From Cytophagales bacterium CG12_big_fil_rev_8_21_14_0_65_40_12 (lineage in GTDB: Bacteria; Bacteroidota; Bacteroidia; Cytophagales; Cyclobacteriaceae), in NCBI GenBank assembly GCA_002786855.1, contig PCUU01000001.1, positions 16,723 to 70,335 of the forward strand: a stretch of 53,613 nt of DNA, written 5' to 3'. Below the pieces are notes generated by a model. That model was not told the origin of the DNA, made no database searches, and saw nothing but the letters and a program-made list of their open reading frames with translations. This document shows positions 5,880-16,437 of the stretch, in pieces. Numbering within the stretch: position 1 is the first letter of the stretch; every line of letters starts with the position of its first letter. Position numbers and translations under genes: made by a program.

Positions 5880-7166
5880 TCAAAACAACCCAAACTTCAA
5901 AAAGGCATTGAAATTAAAGCCCTCAAAATCTCTTGCGCCCATGATTACATTTTCTGATGTTTGGTATTTAAGATCGGCACTCGAAGTATCGCGATAAGAA
6001 AGGCCAAAACCCATTCTCATATATTTAATAACATTGATTTCGAAATTCAATGAGGGCTCAAGCACGAAGAGCGCCCTTTGATCTTCGATAACGGTAATTG
6101 TGGAGGCAACAGGGTCTAGTTTGCCATAAACAATCTCTCCAGCCCCAAACATGACCGAGGTGGTTAAATGAAACACATTATTAGGAAATAGGGTGGCCTC
6201 TAGGAGTACACCGCCATAGCCACCCGTGTACCTAAAAGTATCATTCAATTCTGTATCCAACTCTCCTCTGCTGATAAATCCCTTACCTGACAAGCCGAAG
6301 CCAAACGTTCGATTGGGATGATAAACAATATCTCCACCAATAAGTATGGCATCGCGCTCATTGATAGCAGTATAGCCCACATTGGGTGAGATATACATTC
6401 GGAATTTTTTATCGCTCGTTGGACTCTTCTCCTTGATTTTCCTTTCTTTTTCCTCTTTAGGTGCTTCATTGATCACAAGGTTAAACTTTTGCGGGATAGG
6501 CTTTAGTCTTTTAGGCTTTGGCGGATAAATAGGCACCCAAATCAACGGCCGCTTTTGGTAGGTAGCGTATTTAGCAATAAAAGCAGTGGTCCTAATTCTT
6601 TCTCTCACATAATATTGACGCAACTCCTCCTCTTTAGAAGAAACTTGATTTTTGTCCTCATTCCCCAAAACAGGCTGCGCAACAGAATTGGTAAGCTCAA
6701 TTGAGTCCCTTTTATCATTGGTTTCTTGATTAGCCGAACTGGCAACGGTTTCCTTTGCTGATACTACCGAATTATTCGATGAAGAAGGAATAGATGGGGC
6801 AGTAGGTTTAGGCGCATTTAGAGAATCGGAACGCTCTTGGATGATTCGTGCTGATCTCTTCTTTCGGATCAAAAGCTTATTGCCCATTTGTTGGCACTCC
6901 ATATTCTGACCGATGAAAAGCTTGTCCAAAACAGCAGCAATACTTTCTTGCTTGACATTGATGCTTACCCTTTTCTTAACATCGAAAACTTCGGCTGAGT
7001 AAGTAAAGGCAAAATCCTCGGTCTCGATGCTTTTTAGAATCTCTTCAATTGAAGTATTTCGAAAATTCAAAGTCACTTTTCGCGAAAGCACATCAGCTTG
7101 CTCTTGCCCAATAAGAGCAAGCGAAGAAACCATCAGGGCCAATAAAAAAAAAATCCTTAAGTGCAT
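5880..7166 (-). CDS. STN domain fused to an outer-membrane beta-barrel
   Basis: 428 residues: signal peptide (1-20, ending SSLALIGQ), an STN (secretin/TonB N-terminal) domain at about 28-102 (KVTLNFRNTSIEEILKSIE, VSINVKQESIAAVLDKLF, NKLLIRKK), a long Ser/Asn/Glu then Pro/Lys-rich linker (about 103-255), and a C-terminal beta-barrel of about 170 residues ending in Phe. The barrel is clearly paralogous to the 210-residue protein encoded just upstream (shared RDAILxGG, GGYGG, NVIKxMRxxFGLSYR). STN domains usually sit on TonB-dependent transducers and touch FecR; here there is no plug or TonB receptor barrel. It is the last gene of the fecI-fecR group on this strand. Confidence 0.85.
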   Translation of the reverse strand: MHLRIFFLLALMVSSLALIGQEQADVLSRKVTLNFRNTSIEEILKSIETEDFAFTYSAEVFDVKKRVSINVKQESIAAVLDKLFIGQNMECQQMGNKLLIRKKRSARIIQERSDSLNAPKPTAPSIPSSSNNSVVSAKETVASSANQETNDKRDSIELTNSVAQPVLGNEDKNQVSSKEEELRQYYVRERIRTTAFIAKYATYQKRPLIWVPIYPPKPKRLKPIPQKFNLVINEAPKEEKERKIKEKSPTSDKKFRMYISPNVGYTAINERDAILIGGDIVYHPNRTFGFGLSGKGFISRGELDTELNDTFRYTGGYGGVLLEATLFPNNVFHLTTSVMFGAGEIVYGKLDPVASTITVIEDQRALFVLEPSLNFEINVIKYMRMGFGLSYRDTSSADLKYQTSENVIMGARDFEGFNFNAFLKFGLF

Positions 7167-7229
7167 GCTTTGGAGCTTTGATAGCGATTCCCTTTCTACC
7201 GAAAAGTCAAAGTTTATTTAACGCAAATA

Positions 7230-7246
7230 CTCCCCTTTTGGGGGAG
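7230..7246 (-). terminator. GC-rich hairpin between the two barrel genes
   Basis: CTCCCC and GGGGAG flank a short T-rich loop, forming a six-pair GC-rich stem in the 110-bp gap between the two paralogous barrel genes. No U-run follows on the minus transcript, so it may be a weak terminator, a processing site or an mRNA-stability element that sets different levels of the two proteins. Confidence 0.4.
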
Positions 7247-7276
7247 ATTCGTAATAATGATTGATGAATATTCAAT

Positions 7277-7909
7277 TTAAAATTTTCCAAATTTAAGGCT
7301 TATCGAACCGCTCATGCCCCTGAGCGCATCTTTACCAACAATGGCATTGCCACTTGAGAAATAGCTAAGGTTCACGTCAGAGGTATACCGATAGCTCAAA
7401 CCGAAAGATAACCTCATAAATTTAATCACATTTAATTCTAATTCTGCGCCTGCTTCTGTAACAAAAAATGCCTGGCTAGCTTCCTCCGCATTAAATTCAT
7501 AATCCCTTTCCGTTTCAGCATAGGCTATGCCACCTGCTCCAATCAAAATTGGAAACGATACGTGGATTGGACTTTCAGGAAAAGCGATAAACTCCATACG
7601 AAGACCTCCATATCCGCCAGCTAATAAGTATCGGTCGTCCAATTCGGCATCGTACTTTCGCTCAGTAATGAAACCTGTACCCCCAAAGCCCAAACCAAAA
7701 CGATGATTGATCAACCAGGCGCCATGGCCTCCCATCAAAATCGCGTCTCGGTCGGCAACTTTGGTATAGCCCGTACTTAAACCACCGTAACCCCCATTGC
7801 TGCGCAGACCGTTGCTGTTGAAAATTGTTCTGAATTCTTTGTTGCCATCTTGACCAAAAGAGGCAAATCCGATAAAGAGAAATGCGATTGTAAAAATTGT
7901 TGTTTTCAT
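7277..7909 (-). CDS. outer-membrane beta-barrel protein, paralogue of the STN-barrel
   Basis: 210 residues with a signal peptide (MKTTIFTIAFLFIGFASFGQ) and a Gly/aromatic-rich body with alternating strands ending in FGKF, as expected of an eight-to-ten-strand outer-membrane barrel. It matches the C-terminal half of the next protein on the same strand in several blocks (ADRDAILMGG against NERDAILIGG; GGYGG; NVIKFMRLSFGLSYR). It lies between fecR and the STN-barrel gene and is probably part of the sigma-factor output. Function unknown; perhaps a surface sensor or a structural porin-like protein. Confidence 0.85.
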   Translation of the reverse strand: MKTTIFTIAFLFIGFASFGQDGNKEFRTIFNSNGLRSNGGYGGLSTGYTKVADRDAILMGGHGAWLINHRFGLGFGGTGFITERKYDAELDDRYLLAGGYGGLRMEFIAFPESPIHVSFPILIGAGGIAYAETERDYEFNAEEASQAFFVTEAGAELELNVIKFMRLSFGLSYRYTSDVNLSYFSSGNAIVGKDALRGMSGSISLKFGKF

Positions 7910-8023
7910 AATTTTGTTTTGACTGTTTAAAAATAATTTTGAGTTTTTGACCCTTCAATTCAGCGGCTCAAACGACCAATTTGAGCACAGCTAAAGGTCT
8001 TGTTGTTTACACAGAATGCCCTT

Positions 8024-9007
8024 TTAGCATCCGTTTCCTTTAATAATATATTCTTCGTTATTCAAAGTAATTTCTATGTCGAATAGTGTCTCAATCGTTT
8101 CAATGATGTATTCTAGTGATTCATTTTCAAAACGCGTTGTCAAAGGACAATTCATAAAAGCACTATTTTCGAATTTAAATTCAACCCCATAGGCATTGGC
8201 AATGTCTTCTATCACTTGGCTCATTTTGGTATTTTCGAAAACCAAAGTGCCCGTTTTCCAAGCTAGGTAATTCGCGTTTGTATTTTCTTTCTTCGTGAGT
8301 TTACCGCCTTCATCAATCGACACTTGATCTCCAGGGCTCAAAAGCACAACTTCTTCTTGGGTTGAAAATCTCACCTTACCCGTGATTAAAACCACATCAA
8401 TTCTTTGCCCTTCTTGCGAAGCATTCAGGTTGAAAGAGGTACCTAAAACCCTTGTTTCTGTTTCCTTGGCCTTCACAATAAAAGGTTGTTCTGGATTATG
8501 GGTCACCTCAAAAAGACCTTCTCCAATCAAGTTGACTTCTCTTTGTTTTGCCGAAAACTCGGTTGGAAAAGTAAGGCTTGAACCTTCCTTAAGCCAAACC
8601 TTCGATCCATCGGGAAGTATTGCAGCCTCATTGTTCAATGCTGCCGAAGTTATGGTCTGCAAATCCCCGACTCTATTATTCAAATATTGATTTCCGAAGA
8701 AAAGGAAAGTAGCAATAAGCACAACCGCTGCAGCAACTCTCCAAATCGTTGGAAGGATGAAGAATTGCTTTGCTTTTGGTTTAGCCAATCTCGATTTCAC
8801 CTTCAACCAATTCTTGTTCACATCAATGGCCTCAAAATCAGCCATGGCACCGGCATGCTGCCAAGCATTCTTCAACTTTTCGAAATCCTTGCTGTTTTGA
8901 ACATCAGAAGCCAGCCACAATTCAACTTGCTTAACCTGAGCTTCGTCTGCCTCATTCTTGAGGTAACTGATCAGTAAGTTGTCTTCTATGGTGCTTTTAT
9001 TTTCCAT
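8024..9007 (-). CDS. FecR-family anti-sigma factor with DUF4974 tail
   Basis: 327 residues. The cytoplasmic N-terminus (about 1-85) has the helical anti-sigma region (LLISYLKNEADEAQVKQVELWL), one membrane helix follows (about 86-107, IWRVAAAVVLIATFLFF), then the FecR periplasmic beta domain (about 115-215: AILPDGSKVWLKEGSSL, REVNLIGEGLFEV, VLGTSFNL) and a C-terminal DUF4974 domain (about 250-325). The protein should hold the ECF sigma factor encoded 55 bp upstream and release it on an envelope signal. The nearest possible transducer is the STN-barrel protein. Confidence 0.95.
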   Translation of the reverse strand: MENKSTIEDNLLISYLKNEADEAQVKQVELWLASDVQNSKDFEKLKNAWQHAGAMADFEAIDVNKNWLKVKSRLAKPKAKQFFILPTIWRVAAAVVLIATFLFFGNQYLNNRVGDLQTITSAALNNEAAILPDGSKVWLKEGSSLTFPTEFSAKQREVNLIGEGLFEVTHNPEQPFIVKAKETETRVLGTSFNLNASQEGQRIDVVLITGKVRFSTQEEVVLLSPGDQVSIDEGGKLTKKENTNANYLAWKTGTLVFENTKMSQVIEDIANAYGVEFKFENSAFMNCPLTTRFENESLEYIIETIETLFDIEITLNNEEYIIKGNGC

Positions 9008-9062
9008 TGTTCAGAATTATGACGGGCGGGCAGCAAAACACACGTATGCTTTACAGGATATT

Positions 9063-9635
9063 TTATGAAATATTTTTTAACGCAATCAAAATCAACACTT
9101 TAAGGTAAAGAAAAATGTCCTTCCTAAGTCGTTTGAGTGCATTGCTGATTTGAGTTTCTACAGTTCGTTTCGAAATATTAAGAGCGTCCGCTATTTCTTG
9201 GTTCTTCATTCCATCCAAGCGACTCATCTTAAAAATCAGTTGACACTGTTCTGGTAAATCGGCTATGGCCGCGTAAATCTTTTCTTCAAGTTCCGTTTGC
9301 TCAATCAAGTCCGTACTGTCAATATCCGAGCCTGCATTTTGATATAGAATCTGCTCGTGATGGGCGGTGCGCGTTTGTTGACTGCGAATATGGTCCAAAC
9401 AACGATTTCGAACAGATTGATAAAGTAGAGACTTTAAAGAAGTATGGATTTGTAGCGTTTCTCGGTTTTCATAAAACTTTACAAAAACCTCTTGAACAAT
9501 GTCTTGCGCAAGATCTAAGTCATTCAGAAATTTCTTGGCGAAAACTGTAAGCACTTTAAAATACTCTCGAAAAAGGCCTTCGAAAGCAGTTTCATCTCCA
9601 TTTTTGATTTGGTCAATTAATGCCTGATCTGTCAA
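9063..9635 (-). CDS. ECF RNA polymerase sigma factor, FecI/RpoE-like
   Basis: 190 residues. Region 2 is seen at about 20-90 (LFREYFKVLTVFAKKFL, AQDIVQEVFVKFYENRE), region 4 at about 125-180 (LPEQCQLIFKMSRLDGMKNQEIADALNISKRTVE in two parts), with the usual HTH. It is the Bacteroidota-specific ECF group paired with FecR. First gene of the minus-strand group fecI, fecR, barrel, STN-barrel. It probably directs polymerase to its own operon and to other envelope genes; targets cannot be read here. Confidence 0.95.
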   Translation of the reverse strand: MTDQALIDQIKNGDETAFEGLFREYFKVLTVFAKKFLNDLDLAQDIVQEVFVKFYENRETLQIHTSLKSLLYQSVRNRCLDHIRSQQTRTAHHEQILYQNAGSDIDSTDLIEQTELEEKIYAAIADLPEQCQLIFKMSRLDGMKNQEIADALNISKRTVETQISNALKRLRKDIFLYLKVLILIALKNIS

Positions 9636-9783
9636 AATCTGTTCGGTTAAAAATGCTTATTCATTAAGCACCTGAATGATTGAACCTCAGAAGTATAAAA
9701 AATGCATTTCTACTTCCAGCCGTAAAACTAGAACATTTTTTTCTGAGGATAATACCTGAATATGAAGAGTTCATTTCAATATC

Positions 9784-9960
9784 TCACTCCTTCTTTCTTC
9801 TGAAAGTAAAATAACTGGCTAATAAGCAAAATGGAGGAATGATGTAGGCAAGCTTAACATAAATGGCATTCGATTTATCGTTTGGCATTAATACTATGGT
9901 CAGCACGCTGGCGAGGCCAAGTATTATAAAAATAAATCCTAACAATTTTCTTTTGTTCAT
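9784..9960 (-). CDS. small two-helix membrane protein downstream of the exporter
   Basis: 58 residues from the ATG at 9960 (MNKRKLLGFIFIILGLASV); an earlier in-frame ATG at 9993 would add 11 residues. Two hydrophobic helices (about 6-24 and 33-50) end in a positively charged RRKKE tail. It lies 63 bp after the stop of the C39-peptidase ABC exporter on the same strand, so it may be the last gene of the peptide cluster. I recognise no family. A role in immunity to the exported peptide is possible by position only. Confidence 0.55.
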   Translation of the reverse strand: MNKRKLLGFIFIILGLASVLTIVLMPNDKSNAIYVKLAYIIPPFCLLASYFTFRRKKE

Positions 9961-10023
9961 TAGTACTCTCATTAAGGATTGATTTAATCTCATAATAACT
10001 TTTCCTTGTTTTACGCTTGTATG

Positions 10024-12198
10024 CTAAGCTTGTATAAGACCAAAGTCTTTGTAAAAATCACTATAGAAATTCTCTGATTCAAGAAGCGTATTGGGATTCC
10101 CGAAATCGGTTATTTCGCCCTCTTCTAAAATATAAATTTTGTCAGCTTGAGAAGCCGTGGTTATTCTATGAGTAACCAAAAAAATGGACATCTCATTTTT
10201 CAAGCTTTGTAGCAGGTTCAGCACGAATTTCTCTGTTTTTCGATCTAAGGCTGAAGTTGCCTCATCCAATAAAAGCACCTTTGGTTTCTTCCAAAGGGCA
10301 CGGGCCAATGCCACCAATTGCTTCTGTCCACCAGAAATATTCACCCCTTCTTCACCTAGAATCGTTGCGTAACCTTGTGGGAAATTTCTAAAGAAAGGAT
10401 CAAGGCCATAGGACTCAAAAAAGGTTTGTAATTTTTCAGGAAAAACTTCTGTCTCTCCTAGTAAAATATTGTCGAGCAAAGAACCATTGAAAATCTTGGT
10501 CTCTTGTGGTACAATTCCGATCGAATCTCTTAACGACTTAGGGTAAATATTGGCCCAAGCCTTTCCATCTACGATTATTTCTCCTGATTCGAATTCATAA
10601 AACTTTTGAAGCACTTGAATGAAAGTACTTTTACCACTACCACTTTCGCCCAGTAAACAAACCATTTCTCCCTTGTTGATTTCAAGATTGATGGACTTAA
10701 GCAATTGCTTTCTGCCTGGAAAACGAAAGGACAGATTTTTAACTTTAATTGAATGGATATCTAAAGCTTCTGGCTCCGTTTCCAAATCAACATATTCAGA
10801 CTCAATGGATGTAAACTCATACATTCTATCAAAAGCAATTTTTGCCTCCCTAATTTGAATATTTGCTCGGGCAATCGCCTCGATAGCAGGAAATAATCCA
10901 CCAGCCATCGACAAAATGGCGACTAATTCACCTACTTGAAGCACATCTTGCAAAACCAAATAAGAGGTAAAAGATAGCACAGAAACAATGGCTATTACTC
11001 CAGTAATCTGTGCCCATATTCCATATTTAGTCCCTATAAGCCCCAAGCTATATGCTTTTTCTTGAAAATGACCATAGATCACTTCTGTAGCCTTGCCAAA
11101 AACGGCCTCTTTGTTTTGGTTCTTAATAACCTCAACCCCTTGGATGGTGTCTACATAATTACTTTCGTTCATTGCATAGGCTTGCATTACTTCTTTTTGG
11201 CCCGCTGTAATAGGTTTGTTGAAACGCAAGACTACCCATACATAAATGGGCACGAAACCAAGCAGTATAAGACCTACTTGCCATGAATATGTAAAAACAA
11301 AAACCAAAGAAGTAACCCCAACTAAGAACTGGATAACGATATCTCCAAGAACAAAACTTATGGTGCGTTGAATTCGGCCAGTATCATTCATTCTTGCAAT
11401 CAACTCTCCTGTTTTGCGAGAATCAAAAAAGCGCTTTGGTAAGTGGAGCAGTGCATCGTAAAACTTTTTAATGATGCGGTTATTAAAGTCTTTAGACTGC
11501 CTTAAGAGTAATAGCGTGCGTAAATAACCAATGCCTGATCGTGCCATAAGCAGTATGGCCAAAAGTACCAATCCCAAAACCAGACGTTGCATGTCTTTTT
11601 CTGGAAGAATTACATCGATAAGTTTTTGAGAGAAAAGAGCAGTACTGATTCCTAATACTGAGATGATTATGCCTAAAAATGTAGCAATCGCCAATAAGCC
11701 TAAATCCTCTCTAGCGATATCAATCAACCATTGCTTTTGCTTACCCTTTGTAACTTGCTTGAGTTCTAGTTTATCGGTTGGCCTTACTAATAGCAATGCT
11801 TTTGATTGCCAAATTTCTTCTAGCTCAGCCTCTTTAAGTTTTAATAAGCCCCGAGCAGGATCGCTGATGATGAAATGATCATTCTCGAATGCATATAGAA
11901 TTACGTAATGTTGTAGTTTTCCCTCTAAAATTACATGTAGAATGGCGGGGTGTTCTAAATCCTTAAGGTGTTTGATCTCCGCCTCAAAGCCTTCTGCATT
12001 GAGACCAATTTCATTAGCAGCTTGGTATAAACCCAGAAGTGTTGTGCCTTCCTTTGAAGTGCCACTTACTTCCCTAAGTTTTTCTAATGAAATGTCGCTC
12101 CCAAAATATTTGATTAATGAGGCCAAACAGGCTACTCCGCAATCTGATTGATCGTGTTGTTGAATATGGTATTGCTGATATATATCCTTTTTTGACAT
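10024..12198 (-). CDS. peptidase-containing ABC transporter (C39 bacteriocin-type exporter)
   Basis: 724 residues in the usual order: C39 cysteine peptidase (about 10-140; Cys20 in QSDCGVACL, catalytic His in LQHYVILY, Asp in ISDPARG), six-helix exporter domain (about 160-450) and nucleotide-binding domain (about 480-720; Walker A GESGSGKST, Q-loop VPQE, signature NISGGQKQ, Walker B VLLLDEAT, H-loop VTHR). Such transporters cut double-glycine leaders and export the mature peptide across the inner membrane in one step. The obvious substrate is the 60-residue precursor encoded first in this cluster. No HlyD-type adaptor gene lies next to it, which is unusual for Gram-negative exporters of this class. 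Confidence 0.96.
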   Translation of the reverse strand: MSKKDIYQQYHIQQHDQSDCGVACLASLIKYFGSDISLEKLREVSGTSKEGTTLLGLYQAANEIGLNAEGFEAEIKHLKDLEHPAILHVILEGKLQHYVILYAFENDHFIISDPARGLLKLKEAELEEIWQSKALLLVRPTDKLELKQVTKGKQKQWLIDIAREDLGLLAIATFLGIIISVLGISTALFSQKLIDVILPEKDMQRLVLGLVLLAILLMARSGIGYLRTLLLLRQSKDFNNRIIKKFYDALLHLPKRFFDSRKTGELIARMNDTGRIQRTISFVLGDIVIQFLVGVTSLVFVFTYSWQVGLILLGFVPIYVWVVLRFNKPITAGQKEVMQAYAMNESNYVDTIQGVEVIKNQNKEAVFGKATEVIYGHFQEKAYSLGLIGTKYGIWAQITGVIAIVSVLSFTSYLVLQDVLQVGELVAILSMAGGLFPAIEAIARANIQIREAKIAFDRMYEFTSIESEYVDLETEPEALDIHSIKVKNLSFRFPGRKQLLKSINLEINKGEMVCLLGESGSGKSTFIQVLQKFYEFESGEIIVDGKAWANIYPKSLRDSIGIVPQETKIFNGSLLDNILLGETEVFPEKLQTFFESYGLDPFFRNFPQGYATILGEEGVNISGGQKQLVALARALWKKPKVLLLDEATSALDRKTEKFVLNLLQSLKNEMSIFLVTHRITTASQADKIYILEEGEITDFGNPNTLLESENFYSDFYKDFGLIQA

Positions 12199-12204
12199 TG
12201 ATTT

Positions 12205-12405
12205 TCAACTTGGATCTCCCTTTGACAGAAGAATTTGATAAGCTTTGATCTGGCAAAAAGCAGCGATAGAAAGTGTAGTAAAGCCCAATAAGTATAGGGC
12301 TGAAGTACCATTCTGAAAAATACTAATACCTGCCCAAACAAGTACCAACGCCATAAATTGGAGGTAAATGATAAGGGCTTTATGTCTTTTACTTTTCGCT
12401 GGCAT
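12205..12405 (-). CDS. small membrane protein between thioredoxin-like and exporter genes
   Basis: 66 residues with two predicted helices (about 11-30 LIIYLQFMALVLVWAGISIF and 34-54 ALYLLGFTTLSIAAFCQIKAY) and a basic N-terminus. It overlaps the end of the thioredoxin-like gene by 17 bp and stops 6 bp before the exporter gene, so it is translationally embedded in the operon. No family recognised. Candidate exporter accessory or immunity protein by position. Confidence 0.65.
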   Translation of the reverse strand: MPAKSKRHKALIIYLQFMALVLVWAGISIFQNGTSALYLLGFTTLSIAAFCQIKAYQILLSKGDPS

Positions 12406-12910
12406 ATACCGATAGTAATTCCTCTGGCTTTGTTACCCCAACAAATTTCTGAAGCAGTGTTCCATTTTTGTCATAGGCCAAAAATGTTGGAAATTTTACA
12501 TTGCCATACCTTTCGAGCATCACCTCAATGTCCATATAAGCGAAATGAACATTTTCAAGGCTATCTAGCCCGTAAGTTTTGGAGAATTGGGAGATAGCAC
12601 TTTTTTCATCATAGCTAATCCAAAGAACCTCAAAATCTTTAAACGAACTTCTTGCTTCGAAAATCTCTTGTGCGTCCTTTTGACAGTAATCACAAGAAGG
12701 ATGAAAAAGTGCAACAATTGTATTCATTTCAATTAGATCAGGTGCCGATAATCGAAGGAAAGACAAATTTCGTCTGTCTAATAGTGAATCAAGAGGCTCG
12801 TGGTTCCTTGATATTTTTTTTAAAATAGAATTACCAGCGAGTAACCCGCAACATACAATGAAGATAACTATAACAAATCCTTGAATTACGTTTCTTTTCA
12901 TTAACGACAC
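12389..12910 (-). CDS. membrane-anchored thioredoxin-fold protein
   Basis: 173 residues; an ATG three codons in (12901, MKRNV) may be the true start. An N-terminal helix (about 8-30) would anchor it in the inner membrane with a periplasmic thioredoxin-like domain: MNTIVALFHPSCDYCQKDAQEI holds a CxxC motif (CDYC), and the cis-Pro loop is seen in NVKFPTFLAYDKNG. It belongs to the TlpA/redoxin-like group. The gene sits inside the double-glycine peptide cluster, whose precursor has four cysteines, so disulfide formation or reduction on that peptide is a reasonable inference. Confidence 0.85.
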   Translation of the reverse strand: MSLMKRNVIQGFVIVIFIVCCGLLAGNSILKKISRNHEPLDSLLDRRNLSFLRLSAPDLIEMNTIVALFHPSCDYCQKDAQEIFEARSSFKDFEVLWISYDEKSAISQFSKTYGLDSLENVHFAYMDIEVMLERYGNVKFPTFLAYDKNGTLLQKFVGVTKPEELLSVYASEK

Positions 12911-12912
12911 TT

Positions 12913-13551
12913 TTATAGTGAAACACCCAAGAAACCGTAAACAGCGATTAAGGTGATGAAGCCAGGAAAAATCACTCCTAAAACAATCCTTCTCGCATTA
13001 TGATCATCGATATGGAGCCTGCTGGTTGATAAATAAAGCAATGCTATAATAAACAGTATTAGATTAATATTGATAAATCCTAGACTGGTTTGAAAAAACC
13101 CTACATCAGTAGATATTAAGTCACCCAATGCGAATTCCGGGAAAGAATTTATTTCATCTCTTGATCTGTTGGGAATAAACAGGAAATATAATGACTGAAT
13201 TAGCCTTGAGCATGAAAATGCAAGACTTGACAACATGCATATTTGGAAAATCTTATTGAAGCTCATGGATTTTTCTCTATCTAAGAAAGCAAGGACACCT
13301 AATTTGAATAGGATCACAATTGCTAGTGACCTAAGAATGAGAAATACAGGTGAAAGTAGGTAAGAAATAAAATTTGAGTTTCTTACTCCTTCCATATAAG
13401 AATTAAAGTCAGGCCCTCTAAAATATTCATAGTGTACGCTTTCCGACCAAATGACTTCTTTACTGAACGCGAGAATTGCAATTTGGACAAAGGCTACAAA
13501 TAAGAATATTGCCAAGGAGCTTTCCTTCAATGAGAAATAACTATTTTTCAT
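12913..13551 (-). CDS. multi-pass membrane protein of the peptide cluster
   Basis: 212 residues with about five hydrophobic helices (about 12-30, 60-88, 100-125, 150-175, 190-210). The sequence does not match MauE/DoxX motifs, though such proteins often accompany thioredoxin-like genes in similar clusters. A Yip1-like permease fold is possible but unproven. It starts inside the end of the CarboxypepD_reg gene (11-bp overlap) and stops 2 bp before the thioredoxin-like gene, showing tight coupling in the operon. Confidence 0.75.
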   Translation of the reverse strand: MKNSYFSLKESSLAIFLFVAFVQIAILAFSKEVIWSESVHYEYFRGPDFNSYMEGVRNSNFISYLLSPVFLILRSLAIVILFKLGVLAFLDREKSMSFNKIFQICMLSSLAFSCSRLIQSLYFLFIPNRSRDEINSFPEFALGDLISTDVGFFQTSLGFININLILFIIALLYLSTSRLHIDDHNARRIVLGVIFPGFITLIAVYGFLGVSL

Positions 13552-14860
13552 TGCCCTGCTTTTTAAATTGCAAATTGATTGATTGATCCGCTTCTAATAA
13601 TTTTAAAGCATTCTTATCAATTCTTGGTAGATCTAGTATGCTAAAGTTATTCCAAAAGTCCTCGTTGTAATCGAACTCTATTGAGTAAAGGTCTTTACTT
13701 ACCAACTTATCTCTTCTCTTGACTCTATCGAAGTCCCTCTTGGAAATGTAAGTTTCATTAAAAACCACATAATACTCCGTAAACTGTTGGCCAGTACCAT
13801 CCTTTTTTACAGCAGAAGAAGATTCAGGAAGCACACACTGAATAAAATAAGGATAATAAACTCCTTCAAACTCTCTATATTTTATAATCGTTTTGGACAA
13901 ATATTGGCCATTTCTATTCCAGGCAGTATTTAGTTCTTCAGTTCTCTCTGGGTTATCCTTTCCTATATTTCCGAACATATCTGGTAAAACATATTGAAAT
14001 TCTTCTATTGCATAGTTCTCTGCATTTACCATTAGTGTACCAGAATAGTGCATAATTTCCTTTTTCTCAGGATTGGTTTTAAACGAGATTGAATAAAAAT
14101 TCACTGAATCTTTAAGCACCAATTCTTCGAATTGGAAGTCGTAAAAAGCTAAGAATGGATCCTTATCAAATGAATGAAAAACATTATTTCTTTTATATCT
14201 TCTTAAAAAGTCTTGTTTTATTGCGATTAATATTCCATTTCTCTTACCATAGCCGGCTATTCTTGCTAAAAGAGATCGCTCAATAAAGCTGTCACTTTTT
14301 CTCAACTCCAAAACTTTTACCCTCTGCCTATCAATCGAACTATCAAAACCAAAGTCTTGTAGTTCTGCTGCAGCTTCAATCAATCTTACAATTTGATCAT
14401 CGAAGAAAGTCATTTCTCGATAAAAAAAATCTTGATAATATTGTTGTTTCGGGTAATTGAGATTTAAACGACTAAAGGCTTCAAAAAGAATAGTCGTTAA
14501 ACTGTCTCGATACTCGATCAACTCAAAATCTGGTAAAAAATTGGTCTGTCGTTTAAGAAAATAATTTGATGACGTAGAGTCAGTTTGAGAAATATTTATC
14601 AAACATGACTGAAAACCAGTAAATGAAATCTTCAGGGTATCTGTTAAATGGCGCTCTGGAATTTTTATTTCAAAATAACCGTCTGCGTTGGTGACTGTAC
14701 CATAAGTAGAAGCCACAATGTGAATAGAAGCAAAAGGAAGGGTTGTACTGTCAGAATTATCGTAAACAATACCTGAAATTGTTTTAACCGAACTATTACC
14801 CTGCGACAATAGTTCGGTTAAACAAAACACAAAAAATACCAAAATAAATAGTATCCTCAT
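13541..14860 (-). CDS. secreted CarboxypepD_reg-like beta-rich protein of the peptide cluster
   Basis: 439 residues: signal peptide (1-19), an N-terminal carboxypeptidase-regulatory-like Ig fold (about 26-95; ISGIVYDNSDSTTLPFASI, TNADGYFEIKIPE) and a long C-terminal region without recognised motifs that resembles the part following this domain in DUF5686-type proteins. In Bacteroidota such proteins face the periplasm or outer membrane. Its start codon directly abuts the stop of the double-glycine precursor (TAAATG), so it is translated with the peptide. It could help the peptide cross the outer membrane or protect the producer; both are inference. Confidence 0.85.
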   Translation of the reverse strand: MRILFILVFFVFCLTELLSQGNSSVKTISGIVYDNSDSTTLPFASIHIVASTYGTVTNADGYFEIKIPERHLTDTLKISFTGFQSCLINISQTDSTSSNYFLKRQTNFLPDFELIEYRDSLTTILFEAFSRLNLNYPKQQYYQDFFYREMTFFDDQIVRLIEAAAELQDFGFDSSIDRQRVKVLELRKSDSFIERSLLARIAGYGKRNGILIAIKQDFLRRYKRNNVFHSFDKDPFLAFYDFQFEELVLKDSVNFYSISFKTNPEKKEIMHYSGTLMVNAENYAIEEFQYVLPDMFGNIGKDNPERTEELNTAWNRNGQYLSKTIIKYREFEGVYYPYFIQCVLPESSSAVKKDGTGQQFTEYYVVFNETYISKRDFDRVKRRDKLVSKDLYSIEFDYNEDFWNNFSILDLPRIDKNALKLLEADQSINLQFKKQGNEK

Positions 14861-15043
14861 TTAGGCCAAAGTAATTGGGCACAGCTCAAAAATATGATCC
14901 CGGAAATCGTTCCAGAGGTCGTTATCTTCATAATTGTTCCAAATGAGCTCTAATGAAGAATTGCAATAGCACTCCAAGTCACATACTGTACCTGCCTGCC
15001 CACCATTAACCTTTTCCATTTTCTCTAAACTTAAACTTTTCAT
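14861..15043 (-). CDS. double-glycine leader peptide precursor, four-cysteine acidic core
   Basis: 60 residues. The leader MKSLSLEKMEKVNGG ends in Gly14-Gly15 with the hydrophobic spacing (Leu4, Leu6, Met9, Val12) recognised by C39 peptidases. The 45-residue core has Cys21, Cys25, Cys27 and Cys55, about nine acidic residues against a single Arg, and three Trp/Tyr pairs. It heads the operon that contains the matching C39 exporter. Possible roles are a bacteriocin, a signalling peptide or a surface-bound peptide; Bacteroidota carry many such double-glycine peptides of unknown function. Acidity argues against a classic cationic pore-former. Confidence 0.88.
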   Translation of the reverse strand: MKSLSLEKMEKVNGGQAGTVCDLECYCNSSLELIWNNYEDNDLWNDFRDHIFELCPITLA

Positions 15044-15074
15044 TTTTGTAAAATTTTAATGTTAAACTTAAACT

Positions 15075-15082
15075 CAAAGCTA
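15075..15082 (-). promoter_or_regulatory. -7 promoter box of the peptide operon
   Basis: On the minus strand the eight bases TAGCTTTG match the Bacteroidota -7 consensus TAnnTTTG exactly, 31 bp before the precursor ATG, which would give a 5' leader of about 25 nt. No convincing -33 TTTG is seen. Confidence 0.5.
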
Positions 15083-15116
15083 ATCTCAAATGCTAGCGCG
15101 AGTTGAGAGTAACTTC

Positions 15117-15443
15117 TTACTGACAAGTATAAATGCCCTCAGTGAAATAAAATTGCACTGGATAATTTTTTACAAAAAAACTTCCATTAGCCTTAATTTT
15201 TGCCATAGCATCTTCTTTCAGAGATGAAAAACCCATATTCCATGCCACTGGGTATTCATATAGGTAAGAAGACAGCGCAGCCTAGTACACAATTGGTGCA
15301 CCCATCTGCTTCATTAAATCTATAAGATTATGGAGCTGTCTTTTGCTAATGCCTAAACGTGAAGCCAATTCAATAGGAGAGCCAGTAGCCCTTCTTTTGA
15401 TTAATTCATGGATTCTCTGAATCCTTTCTGCTTGTTTTAACAT
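15117..15443 (-). pseudogene. HTH regulator gene interrupted by an in-frame amber codon
   Basis: The minus strand from the ATG at 15443 reads an HTH domain (KQAERIQRIHELIKRR, SPIELASRLGISKRQLHNLI) for 53 codons, meets TAG at 15284-15282 and then stays open for another 54 codons to TAA at 15117 in the same frame. The part after the stop (SSYLYEYPVAWNMGF) looks like the usual continuation of small HTH proteins found near Bacteroidota double-glycine clusters (Tyr-rich wing followed by Gly-Phe). One base change would restore a 108-residue protein. It may be a recent pseudogene, a sequencing error, a 53-residue HTH-only protein, or a readthrough case. Confidence 0.75.
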
Positions 15444-15487
15444 AGTTATTTAACTTAAAAACATATGAATTGAATTGATCTGTTTTT

Positions 15488-15495
15488 CAAACATA
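15488..15495 (-). promoter_or_regulatory. -7 promoter box of the HTH gene
   Basis: TATGTTTG on the minus strand is a perfect TAnnTTTG box 44 bp before the HTH ATG. It gives the broken regulator gene its own transcription start apart from the peptide operon promoter. Confidence 0.45.
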
Positions 15496-15578
15496 TAAGT
15501 CTTAATCTCTTCTCTCGATTGTCATAGTTATAAAATCCTGTCTTAAGATCAAATCGAAAGTTGAGATAAATTATTATT

Positions 15579-15607
15579 CATGTCGTAATAAAATGATGAA
15601 CGACATG
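15579..15607. promoter_or_regulatory. 8-bp inverted repeat, possible operator
   Basis: CATGTCGT, 13 bases, ACGACATG: perfect eight-base arms. A related GACAT appears again near 15653. Located between divergent transcription units, it could bind a dimeric regulator. There is no T-run, so it is not a terminator. Confidence 0.35.
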
Positions 15608-15787
15608 TATTCAGTGCTAAATAACATGTTTGGTATATCGAATGACATTTGACAACCTAAATTTATACAGCACGCTTGCTACAACTTACGGGATTGCAAG
15701 TCCTGTTATAACTTTGCCCGCCCATCGTGGTAATTTAATAGAGTCTGGTATTTTATGGGTTACATGTTGTGAATTCGAAAACATTCA

Positions 15788-15815
15788 TTTACTTTGCAAC
15801 TCAAAGTACTTTTAA
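15788..15815 (+). promoter_or_regulatory. operator-like palindrome, copy 1
   Basis: TTTACTTTG, five bases (CAACT), CAAAGTACTTTTAA. The core ACTTTG-N5-CAAAGT is a perfect inverted repeat that includes a seven-of-eight match to the Bacteroidota -7 box (TTACTTTG). It ends 2 bp before the ATG of the membrane-protein gene. The same 28-bp pattern recurs before creD. Likely operator of the winged-helix regulator encoded between the two copies. Confidence 0.7.
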
Positions 15816-15816
15816 T

Positions 15817-16437
15817 ATGGCAAAGGATTACTTGAAAGACCTCTCCGAAATTCGCTCCATTATGGAGAAGTCTTCTCGGTTTATTTCATTGAGCGGACTT
15901 ACGGGCGTTTTAGCAGGAATATATGCATTGATAGGCGCATTTGTTGCGAATAAGTTGATCTACAATAGCGATGACGTAATTTATCATGAGCTCTTAAGTC
16001 AAAGGCAGGTATCGGAAAACTTGACTTGGCTTATTCTTGATTTGGTCGTGGTATTTCTATTGGCAGTGGGTACAGGTGTGTATTTTACTACCAAAAAAGC
16101 CAAAAAGCACGGGGTAAAAACTTGGGACGAAAGCGCTAAAAGAGTCATTATTAATCTGATGATTCCTTTAGTCATTGGAGGCATATTCGTGATGATTCTT
16201 TATAGCCGAGGTCTTATTTCATTAATGGCGCCTTCGACTTTAATTTTCTATGGTTTGGCTTTGGTAAATACCAGTAAGTATACTTTTCGCGATATCCGTT
16301 ATCTTGGGCTTATTCAGGCGGGATTGGGTTTAATCGCCTGCACAACTCCAGGCTACGGATTAATCATTTGGGCTTTGGGCTTTGGAGTAATGCACATTGT
16401 ATATGGTGCTGTGATGTACTTTAAATACGAGCGTTGA
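15817..16437 (+). CDS. six-helix membrane protein paired with a winged-helix regulator
   Basis: 206 residues from the ATG at 15817 (MAKDYLKDLSEIRSIMEKSSRF). About six hydrophobic segments are seen (about 22-42, 70-92, 110-133, 138-158, 165-180, 182-200). The N-terminal DLSEIRSIMEKSSRFISLSG stretch is typical of a Bacteroidota membrane family encoded beside small winged-helix regulators. Function unknown. The stop overlaps the TTG start of the regulator gene by 3 bp (TTGA), so they are co-translated. Confidence 0.8.
   Translation: MAKDYLKDLSEIRSIMEKSSRFISLSGLTGVLAGIYALIGAFVANKLIYNSDDVIYHELLSQRQVSENLTWLILDLVVVFLLAVGTGVYFTTKKAKKHGVKTWDESAKRVIINLMIPLVIGGIFVMILYSRGLISLMAPSTLIFYGLALVNTSKYTFRDIRYLGLIQAGLGLIACTTPGYGLIIWALGFGVMHIVYGAVMYFKYER

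What the first reader, a model, noticed from the sequence alone, without database searches (positions are those of the whole stretch)
9784..15443. A complete double-glycine peptide production cluster with unusual partners
Seen: on one strand, an HTH gene (broken), a 60-residue GG-leader precursor, a CarboxypepD_reg protein starting at the precursor stop, a five-helix membrane protein, a thioredoxin-like protein, a small two-helix protein and a C39-peptidase ABC exporter, all overlapping or within a few bases. Known: C39 exporters cut and export GG peptides. Inference: this is a dedicated maturation and export system for one acidic four-cysteine peptide, possibly a signalling or surface peptide rather than a classic bacteriocin.
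Basis: partly seen in the sequence, partly recalled or inferred. Interest (0 to 1): 0.78.

Follow-up and report, generated by a model that had tools for sequence, protein, structure and literature searches.

The report
Swappable peptide-toxin cassette with LolA-like partner
This is a mobile set of genes with which a Bacteroidota bacterium probably makes, cuts and exports a small cysteine-containing antibacterial peptide; the machinery resembles that of the known bacteroidetocins, but the peptide belongs to a different group that travels with an extra periplasmic protein, probably for self-protection or carriage.

Summary
In detail: on the minus strand lie a regulator gene with an in-frame stop, a GG-leader precursor, a CarboxypepD_reg protein (CarbD), a multi-helix membrane protein, a CxxC thioredoxin, a small protein and a C39 exporter. 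They sit in a 6.0-kb insertion (9755-15777); none of 12 congener loci inspected has the exporter or CarbD there, and one carries only small membrane-type ORFs. Membrane protein, thioredoxin and C39 exporter are the known partners of bacteroidetocins (Coyne 2019), so they are not unusual. CarbD is the extra part. It occurs in 7 of 56 well-covered exporter loci and goes with a hydrophilic peptide type with an early YC motif (12 of 14 CarbD-linked cores, 0 of 76 others). On the exporter tree it is clustered but not one clade (5 changes). One pair of loci with 92% identical exporter DNA has core, CarbD, membrane gene and most of the thioredoxin replaced as a block. CarbD is predicted to be a SusC-NTE-like domain plus a LolA/LolB-like half-barrel. 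Most likely this is a bacteriocin cassette in which CarbD protects against the peptide or carries it in the periplasm. Signalling is not excluded. New variant of a known kind; no activity has been tested.

The parts
9755..15777 (.). Inserted cassette, 6,023 bp, between the ECF sigma gene (9063-9635) and the gene listed at 15769-16437 (its listed GTG start lies just inside the insert)
   Evidence: Flanks 9601-9754 and 15778-15887 align 10 bp apart in congener G391 (L164); sigma and CreD-like neighbours lie together, with no exporter or CarbD match between them, in 12 of 12 congener loci fetched; lowest GC of the 6-kb windows taken at 250-base steps, 35.7% against a mean of 39.4%
15117..15443 (-). 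Small HTH regulator gene interrupted by one in-frame TAG (ORF 15282-15443; frame goes on to 15117)
   Evidence: HTH_11 7.7e-05, below Pfam's cut-off; 47% identical over 53 residues to an intact 109-aa paralogue beside another GG-peptide locus on contig C80; the piece after the stop matches the same paralogue in register, 13 of 22
15075..15082 (-). Possible Bacteroidota -7 element TAGCTTTG upstream of the precursor (weak)
   Evidence: TAnnTTTG consensus recalled; 48 matches in the window, 60 expected by chance, so not evidence by itself
14999..15043 (-). 15-residue GG leader
   Evidence: rank 1 of 986 by leader profile
14861..14998 (-). 45-residue acidic core with four Cys, plus stop codon; member of the YC...C group
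   Evidence: alignment of 14 CarbD-linked precursors; properties
13541..14860 (-). CarbD: signal peptide (by eye), SusC-NTE/CarboxypepD_reg-like domain (about 24-109), LolA/LolB-like half-barrel (about 117-395)
12913..13551 (-). Multi-helix membrane protein (TM5), relative of the five-TM protein of bacteroidetocin loci
   Evidence: AF2 pLDDT 90.5, all-helical; family found in 55 of 56 well-covered exporter loci; family profile matches the TM protein of a locus with bacteroidetocin gene order, hhalign prob 98.4
12389..12910 (-). Thioredoxin-like protein, membrane anchor by eye, CxxC at residues 73-76
   Evidence: Thioredoxin_2; C73, C76 and P141 invariant in the 5 aligned sequences, window included; family found in 54 of 56 well-covered loci
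12205..12405 (-). 66-aa protein, two helices by eye, immunity candidate
   Evidence: ORF; phmmer found only itself among the ORFs of the loci used
10024..12198 (-). C39 peptidase ABC exporter, with Q14, C20, H97 and D113 present
   Evidence: Pfam and NCBIfam (best NCBIfam model below its cut-off); those residues invariant in the 6 aligned sequences, window included, others 46-54% identical; that these are the catalytic residues is recalled
9784..9993 (-). 69-aa protein, two helices by eye, immunity candidate; homologue at the same site in congener G241 without the rest
   Evidence: 66% identical in L162 3298-3501; dN/dS about 0.26

Best explanation
A mobile bacteriocin-type cassette. Shown by sequence: a GG precursor, a C39 exporter with conserved peptidase residues, a CxxC thioredoxin, the bacteroidetocin-type membrane protein and CarbD, inserted as one block at a variable site. 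Inferred: the C39 domain cuts after GG and the pump moves the 45-residue acidic core into the periplasm; the thioredoxin makes or corrects its disulfides; TM5 is needed as in bacteroidetocins (role unknown). CarbD, a secreted NTE plus LolA-like protein, is the partner of the YC peptide group. I hold it most likely to bind the peptide in the periplasm and so protect the producer (about 0.45), or else to hand it to an outer-membrane exit (about 0.3). The released peptide probably acts against related Bacteroidota. The step across the outer membrane, the target and the activity are not shown.
For: Same genes in 5 further genomes among 17 CarbD loci fetched with about 20 kb (one lacks Trx, one is rearranged), and in more found later. 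In bacteroidetocin B, deleting the TM or the oxidoreductase gene attenuated the toxin and the four genes sufficed in E. coli; profiles match the parts of an unnamed TM-peptide-Trx-ABC locus. CarbD goes with a peptide type: YC within 12 residues of the leader in 12 of 14 CarbD-linked cores against 0 of 76 others. CarbD is not one clade on the exporter tree: 5 changes, 4 forced, among 63 exporters of known status; L113 and L136 sit far from the Cytophagia members, beside exporters without CarbD. L088 against L097: exporter side 92% identical, leader 91% over 46 nt, everything between replaced. Variable insertion site. Intact CarbD genes kept without an exporter nearby in three genomes of another genus, dN/dS 0.14 and 0.09 for two pairs, dS of the third saturated. 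No HlyD-type adaptor near the exporter in 56 of 56 loci.
Against: No activity, expression or target data. Bacteroidetocin producers inhibit themselves and no immunity protein was found, so an immunity gene need not exist. CarbD-like proteins are a large family with many members away from any exporter (211 of 390 family genomes at E 1e-30), so the exporter-free copies may do something else. The CarbD label is clustered on the exporter tree (5 changes against 12.8 on shuffling), so part of its link with YC cores may be common descent; L088/L097 is the one clean contrast. Bacteroidetocins A and B are basic; this core is strongly acidic. The HTH gene carries a stop codon, so the cassette may be unregulated or decaying.
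Confidence: 0.66

Rival explanations
1. CarbD is an outer-membrane delivery carrier: it takes the oxidised peptide from the exporter across the periplasm, LolA-like, and docks by its NTE domain to an outer-membrane transporter for exit.
For: NTE plus LolA/LolB-like fold; no HlyD-type adaptor near any of 56 exporters; a CarboxypepD_reg-bearing TonB-dependent transporter is required to secrete PopC outward in Myxococcus (PMC6434023, passages read).
Against: 49 of 56 well-covered exporter loci have no CarbD above 100 bits; the NTE of Oar was dispensable for PopC secretion; CarbD persists without a nearby exporter in three genomes.
Confidence: 0.3
2. The product is a signalling or surface peptide.
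For: Acidic hydrophilic core, unlike hydrophobic class II-like peptides; small HTH gene beside it; upstream of four other CarbD loci lie two LuxR-type response regulators (L088, L205, the latter divergent), a LuxR-type domain ORF (L043) and a LytTR ORF (L136), which would also fit regulated toxin production.
Against: I saw no receptor gene in the shared gene order; the cassette is exchanged and present in one of the congeners compared, with small membrane-type ORFs alone at the site in another, which fits toxin and immunity better.
Confidence: 0.16
3. The cassette is decaying and makes nothing; only remnants are under selection.
For: HTH gene has an in-frame stop; degraded relatives exist (L208, L213).
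Against: Precursor, CarbD, TM5, Trx and exporter are all open, with conserved residues.
Confidence: 0.12

Closest known systems
Bacteroidetocins (Coyne et al. 2019, PMC6671954; section 7 and passages read)
   Same: 15-residue GG leader, core of similar size with at least two Cys, five-TM protein, thiol oxidoreductase and C39 ABC exporter in one short operon
   Different: CarbD, an HTH gene and two small proteins added; precursor lies upstream of CarbD rather than between TM and Trx; core strongly acidic with a YC...C pattern; sits in an insertion absent from congeners
Hydrophobic class II-like GG peptides of Bacteroidota with the same TM5-Trx-C39 machinery (loci)
   Same: leader, TM5, Trx; the 80 exporters kept are 47-55% identical to the window's
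   Different: hydrophobic cores (median GRAVY 1.05 against -0.17), no YC motif, CarbD absent from 49 of 56; 12 of 56 carry an extra ABC ATPase
LolA/LolB fold proteins and SusC NTE domains
   Same: predicted folds of the two CarbD domains
   Different: the two are fused here; sequence identity to the listed LolA-type structures only 6-14%; no lipoprotein role shown

Membership tests
Bacteroidetocin-type locus | five-TM protein gene | tested here: met
   TM5 12913-13551; the TM5 family profile matches the TM protein of L238, which has the bacteroidetocin gene order. L238 has no name, so identity with a published bacteroidetocin is not shown
Bacteroidetocin-type locus | thiol oxidoreductase gene | tested here: met
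   CxxC thioredoxin
Bacteroidetocin-type locus | C39 ABC exporter | tested here: met
Bacteroidetocin peptide | GG leader of 15-16 residues and small core with at least two Cys | tested here: met
   15-residue leader, 45-residue core, four Cys
Bacteroidetocin peptide | core sequence similar to bacteroidetocins A-D | tested here: inconclusive
   published sequences were not at hand; against the L238 peptide BLASTP E 4e-05 for a single comparison, best in the leader
Bacteroidetocin peptide | kills Bacteroidota through BamA | not testable with these tools
   no bench data; BamA target from PMC8546649 (passages read)
C39 peptidase-containing ABC exporters | N-terminal C39 peptidase with conserved residues, TM and ATPase domains | tested here: met
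LolA superfamily (CarbD C-terminal domain) | half-barrel fold | tested here: inconclusive
Type I secretion with HlyD-type adaptor | adaptor gene beside the exporter | tested here: not met
   no match near 56 of 56 related exporters by phmmer with two HlyD-domain proteins of the same genome; no HlyD domain in the cassette proteins scanned

The most novel reading that the evidence does not exclude
Bacteroidota carry a distinct class of acidic YC peptides whose partner is a LolA-like periplasmic protein with a SusC-type NTE domain; core, partner and membrane genes are exchanged as one block by recombination between a conserved leader and the conserved Trx-exporter end, so producers can change weapon while keeping the exporter.
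Probability: 0.37. Interest if true: 0.72.

Novelty: new variant of a known kind. Interest (0 to 1): 0.5.

Why it matters
How Bacteroidota release such peptides through the outer membrane and cope with their own toxin is open: the bacteroidetocin study found no immunity protein and leaves outer-membrane release open. A LolA-like partner that travels with one peptide class gives a concrete gene to test for both. The exchange between two loci with nearly identical exporters also offers a natural experiment on which genes belong to the peptide and which to the pump.

Full report
What is there. The minus strand of 9784-15443 carries, in order of transcription, an HTH gene with one in-frame TAG, a 60-aa GG precursor, CarbD, a membrane protein (TM5), a thioredoxin-like protein, a 66-aa protein, a C39 ABC exporter and a 69-aa protein (two-helix nature of the small proteins by eye). 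Domains of CarbD, thioredoxin and exporter are confirmed by Pfam; NCBIfam's best exporter model scores below its cut-off. The leader stands out from chance: rank 1 of 986 M-started 15-mers in the window, 39.3 bits against 15.0. The exporter keeps Q14, C20, H97 and D113 and the thioredoxin its CxxC and P141. The core has 45 residues, four Cys, calculated pI 4.05.

It is an inserted cassette. In 12 of 12 congener loci fetched, the ECF sigma gene on one side and the genes 15769, 16434 and CreD-like on the other lie close together with no exporter or CarbD match in between. In G391 the flanks that end at window 9754 and begin at 15778 are 10 bp apart. In G241 the same site holds about 0.8 kb with three small membrane-type ORFs, the first 66% identical to the window's 69-aa protein. 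In a sample of 148 family genomes only the window's own matched that protein; G241 would have matched, so presumably it was not drawn. The insert is the GC-poorest of the 6-kb windows taken at 250-base steps. Host: the search groups the window with G199, whose contig length equals that of Cognataquiflexum nitidum, so the host is probably of the Cyclobacteriaceae (inference).

Relatives. The CarbD search over 390 genomes of the order led me to fetch 17 CarbD loci with about 20 kb each; 5 have the exporter and its partners beside CarbD (L038-L040, L042, L043). L038 lacks the thioredoxin gene; in L042 CarbD is frameshifted and lies behind the exporter. A named scan with an exporter alignment kept the best 80 of 397 loci, by their titles mainly Flavobacteriia and Cytophagia, with some Bacteroidales and four Balneolaceae. 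Of 56 with at least 3.2 kb upstream, 55 have TM5, 54 Trx and 7 CarbD above 100 bits. None of the 56 shows a HlyD-type adaptor nearby (the two query proteins carry HlyD domains).

Known machinery. Coyne et al. 2019 (PMC6671954; section 7 and passages read) describe bacteroidetocins as four genes: a protein with five transmembrane regions, a small GG peptide, a thiol oxidoreductase and a C39 ABC exporter. Deleting the membrane or oxidoreductase gene attenuates the toxin, neither gives immunity, the four genes suffice in E. coli, and producers inhibit themselves. One unnamed Bacteroidales locus with this gene order (L238) matches my TM5 and Trx profiles and the window exporter. BamA is the bacteroidetocin target (PMC8546649, passages read).

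The extra part. CarbD is modelled as a SusC-NTE-like domain and a LolA/LolB-like half-barrel behind an apparent signal peptide (moderate confidence). It goes with a peptide type: 12 of 14 CarbD-linked cores carry YC within 12 residues of the leader, 0 of 76 cores in 49 other loci do; median GRAVY -0.17 against 1.05, p 3e-08 without correction for relatedness. The two exceptions are L059 and L215. On a tree of 63 exporters of known status the CarbD label needs 5 changes, 4 of them forced, and no bootstrap tree has one origin; but it is clustered (12.8 on shuffling), so descent explains part of the link (an earlier count of 8 took loci with cut-off upstream sides for CarbD-free). L088 and L097 make an exchange visible: 92% nucleotide identity from the last 150 nt of the Trx gene onward, 91% over 46 nt of leader, and in between core, CarbD, two TM5 genes and most of Trx replaced by another core, a 50-aa ORF, TM5 and Trx.

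CarbD without exporter. In another genus, three genomes (G310, G578, G587) keep an intact CarbD between a TrkA-like and a patatin-like gene with no exporter in the stretch examined, where a fourth (G322) has an exporter cassette (gene names by eye). dN/dS is 0.14 and 0.09 for two pairs; for the third, dS is saturated. dS of CarbD between G310 and G578 is 0.45 against 2.25 for the TrkA-like neighbour, as if CarbD had been exchanged more recently. This favours self-protection over a pure export role, but family members far from any exporter are common, so it is not proof.

Reading. A bacteriocin-type cassette with known cutting, oxidation and pumping machinery, a distinct peptide class and a periplasmic partner that goes with it. 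Antibacterial action, CarbD's role and the route through the outer membrane are inferences. LuxR- or LytTR-type regulators upstream of four other CarbD loci leave room for regulated or signalling use.

Noticed in passing
L098 597-1919: A UDP-glycosyltransferase-type ORF (PF00201, 3e-16) lies between the thioredoxin gene and the C39 exporter of a Flammeovirgaceae MAG; possibly a glycosylated GG peptide.
   Followed up: partly
own genome, L054 6851-11057 and L055 155-5495: Two further C39 exporter loci with GG-like peptides and HlyD-domain proteins in the same genome; the one on C80 has an intact relative of the HTH gene.
   Followed up: partly
L075 5395-6592; L086 4970-5916: Runs of five and four GG precursors in one locus.
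   Followed up: no
window 5880-9635: ECF sigma, FecR and envelope protein genes directly downstream on the same strand; the sigma gene is kept in congeners without the cassette, so probably unrelated to it.
   Followed up: partly
L246 11666-15155: A distant CarbD relative next to ECF sigma and FecR genes in a Phocaeicola record filed as plasmid, with no exporter.
   Followed up: partly
L077, L088, L113, L136: CarbD loci often hold a second TM5 copy (4 of 7 against 1 of 49 others).
   Followed up: partly
L088 3859-4509; L205 8182-8808; L043 11534-11794; L136 160-396: LuxR-type response regulators or LuxR/LytTR DNA-binding ORFs upstream of CarbD cassettes.
   Followed up: partly
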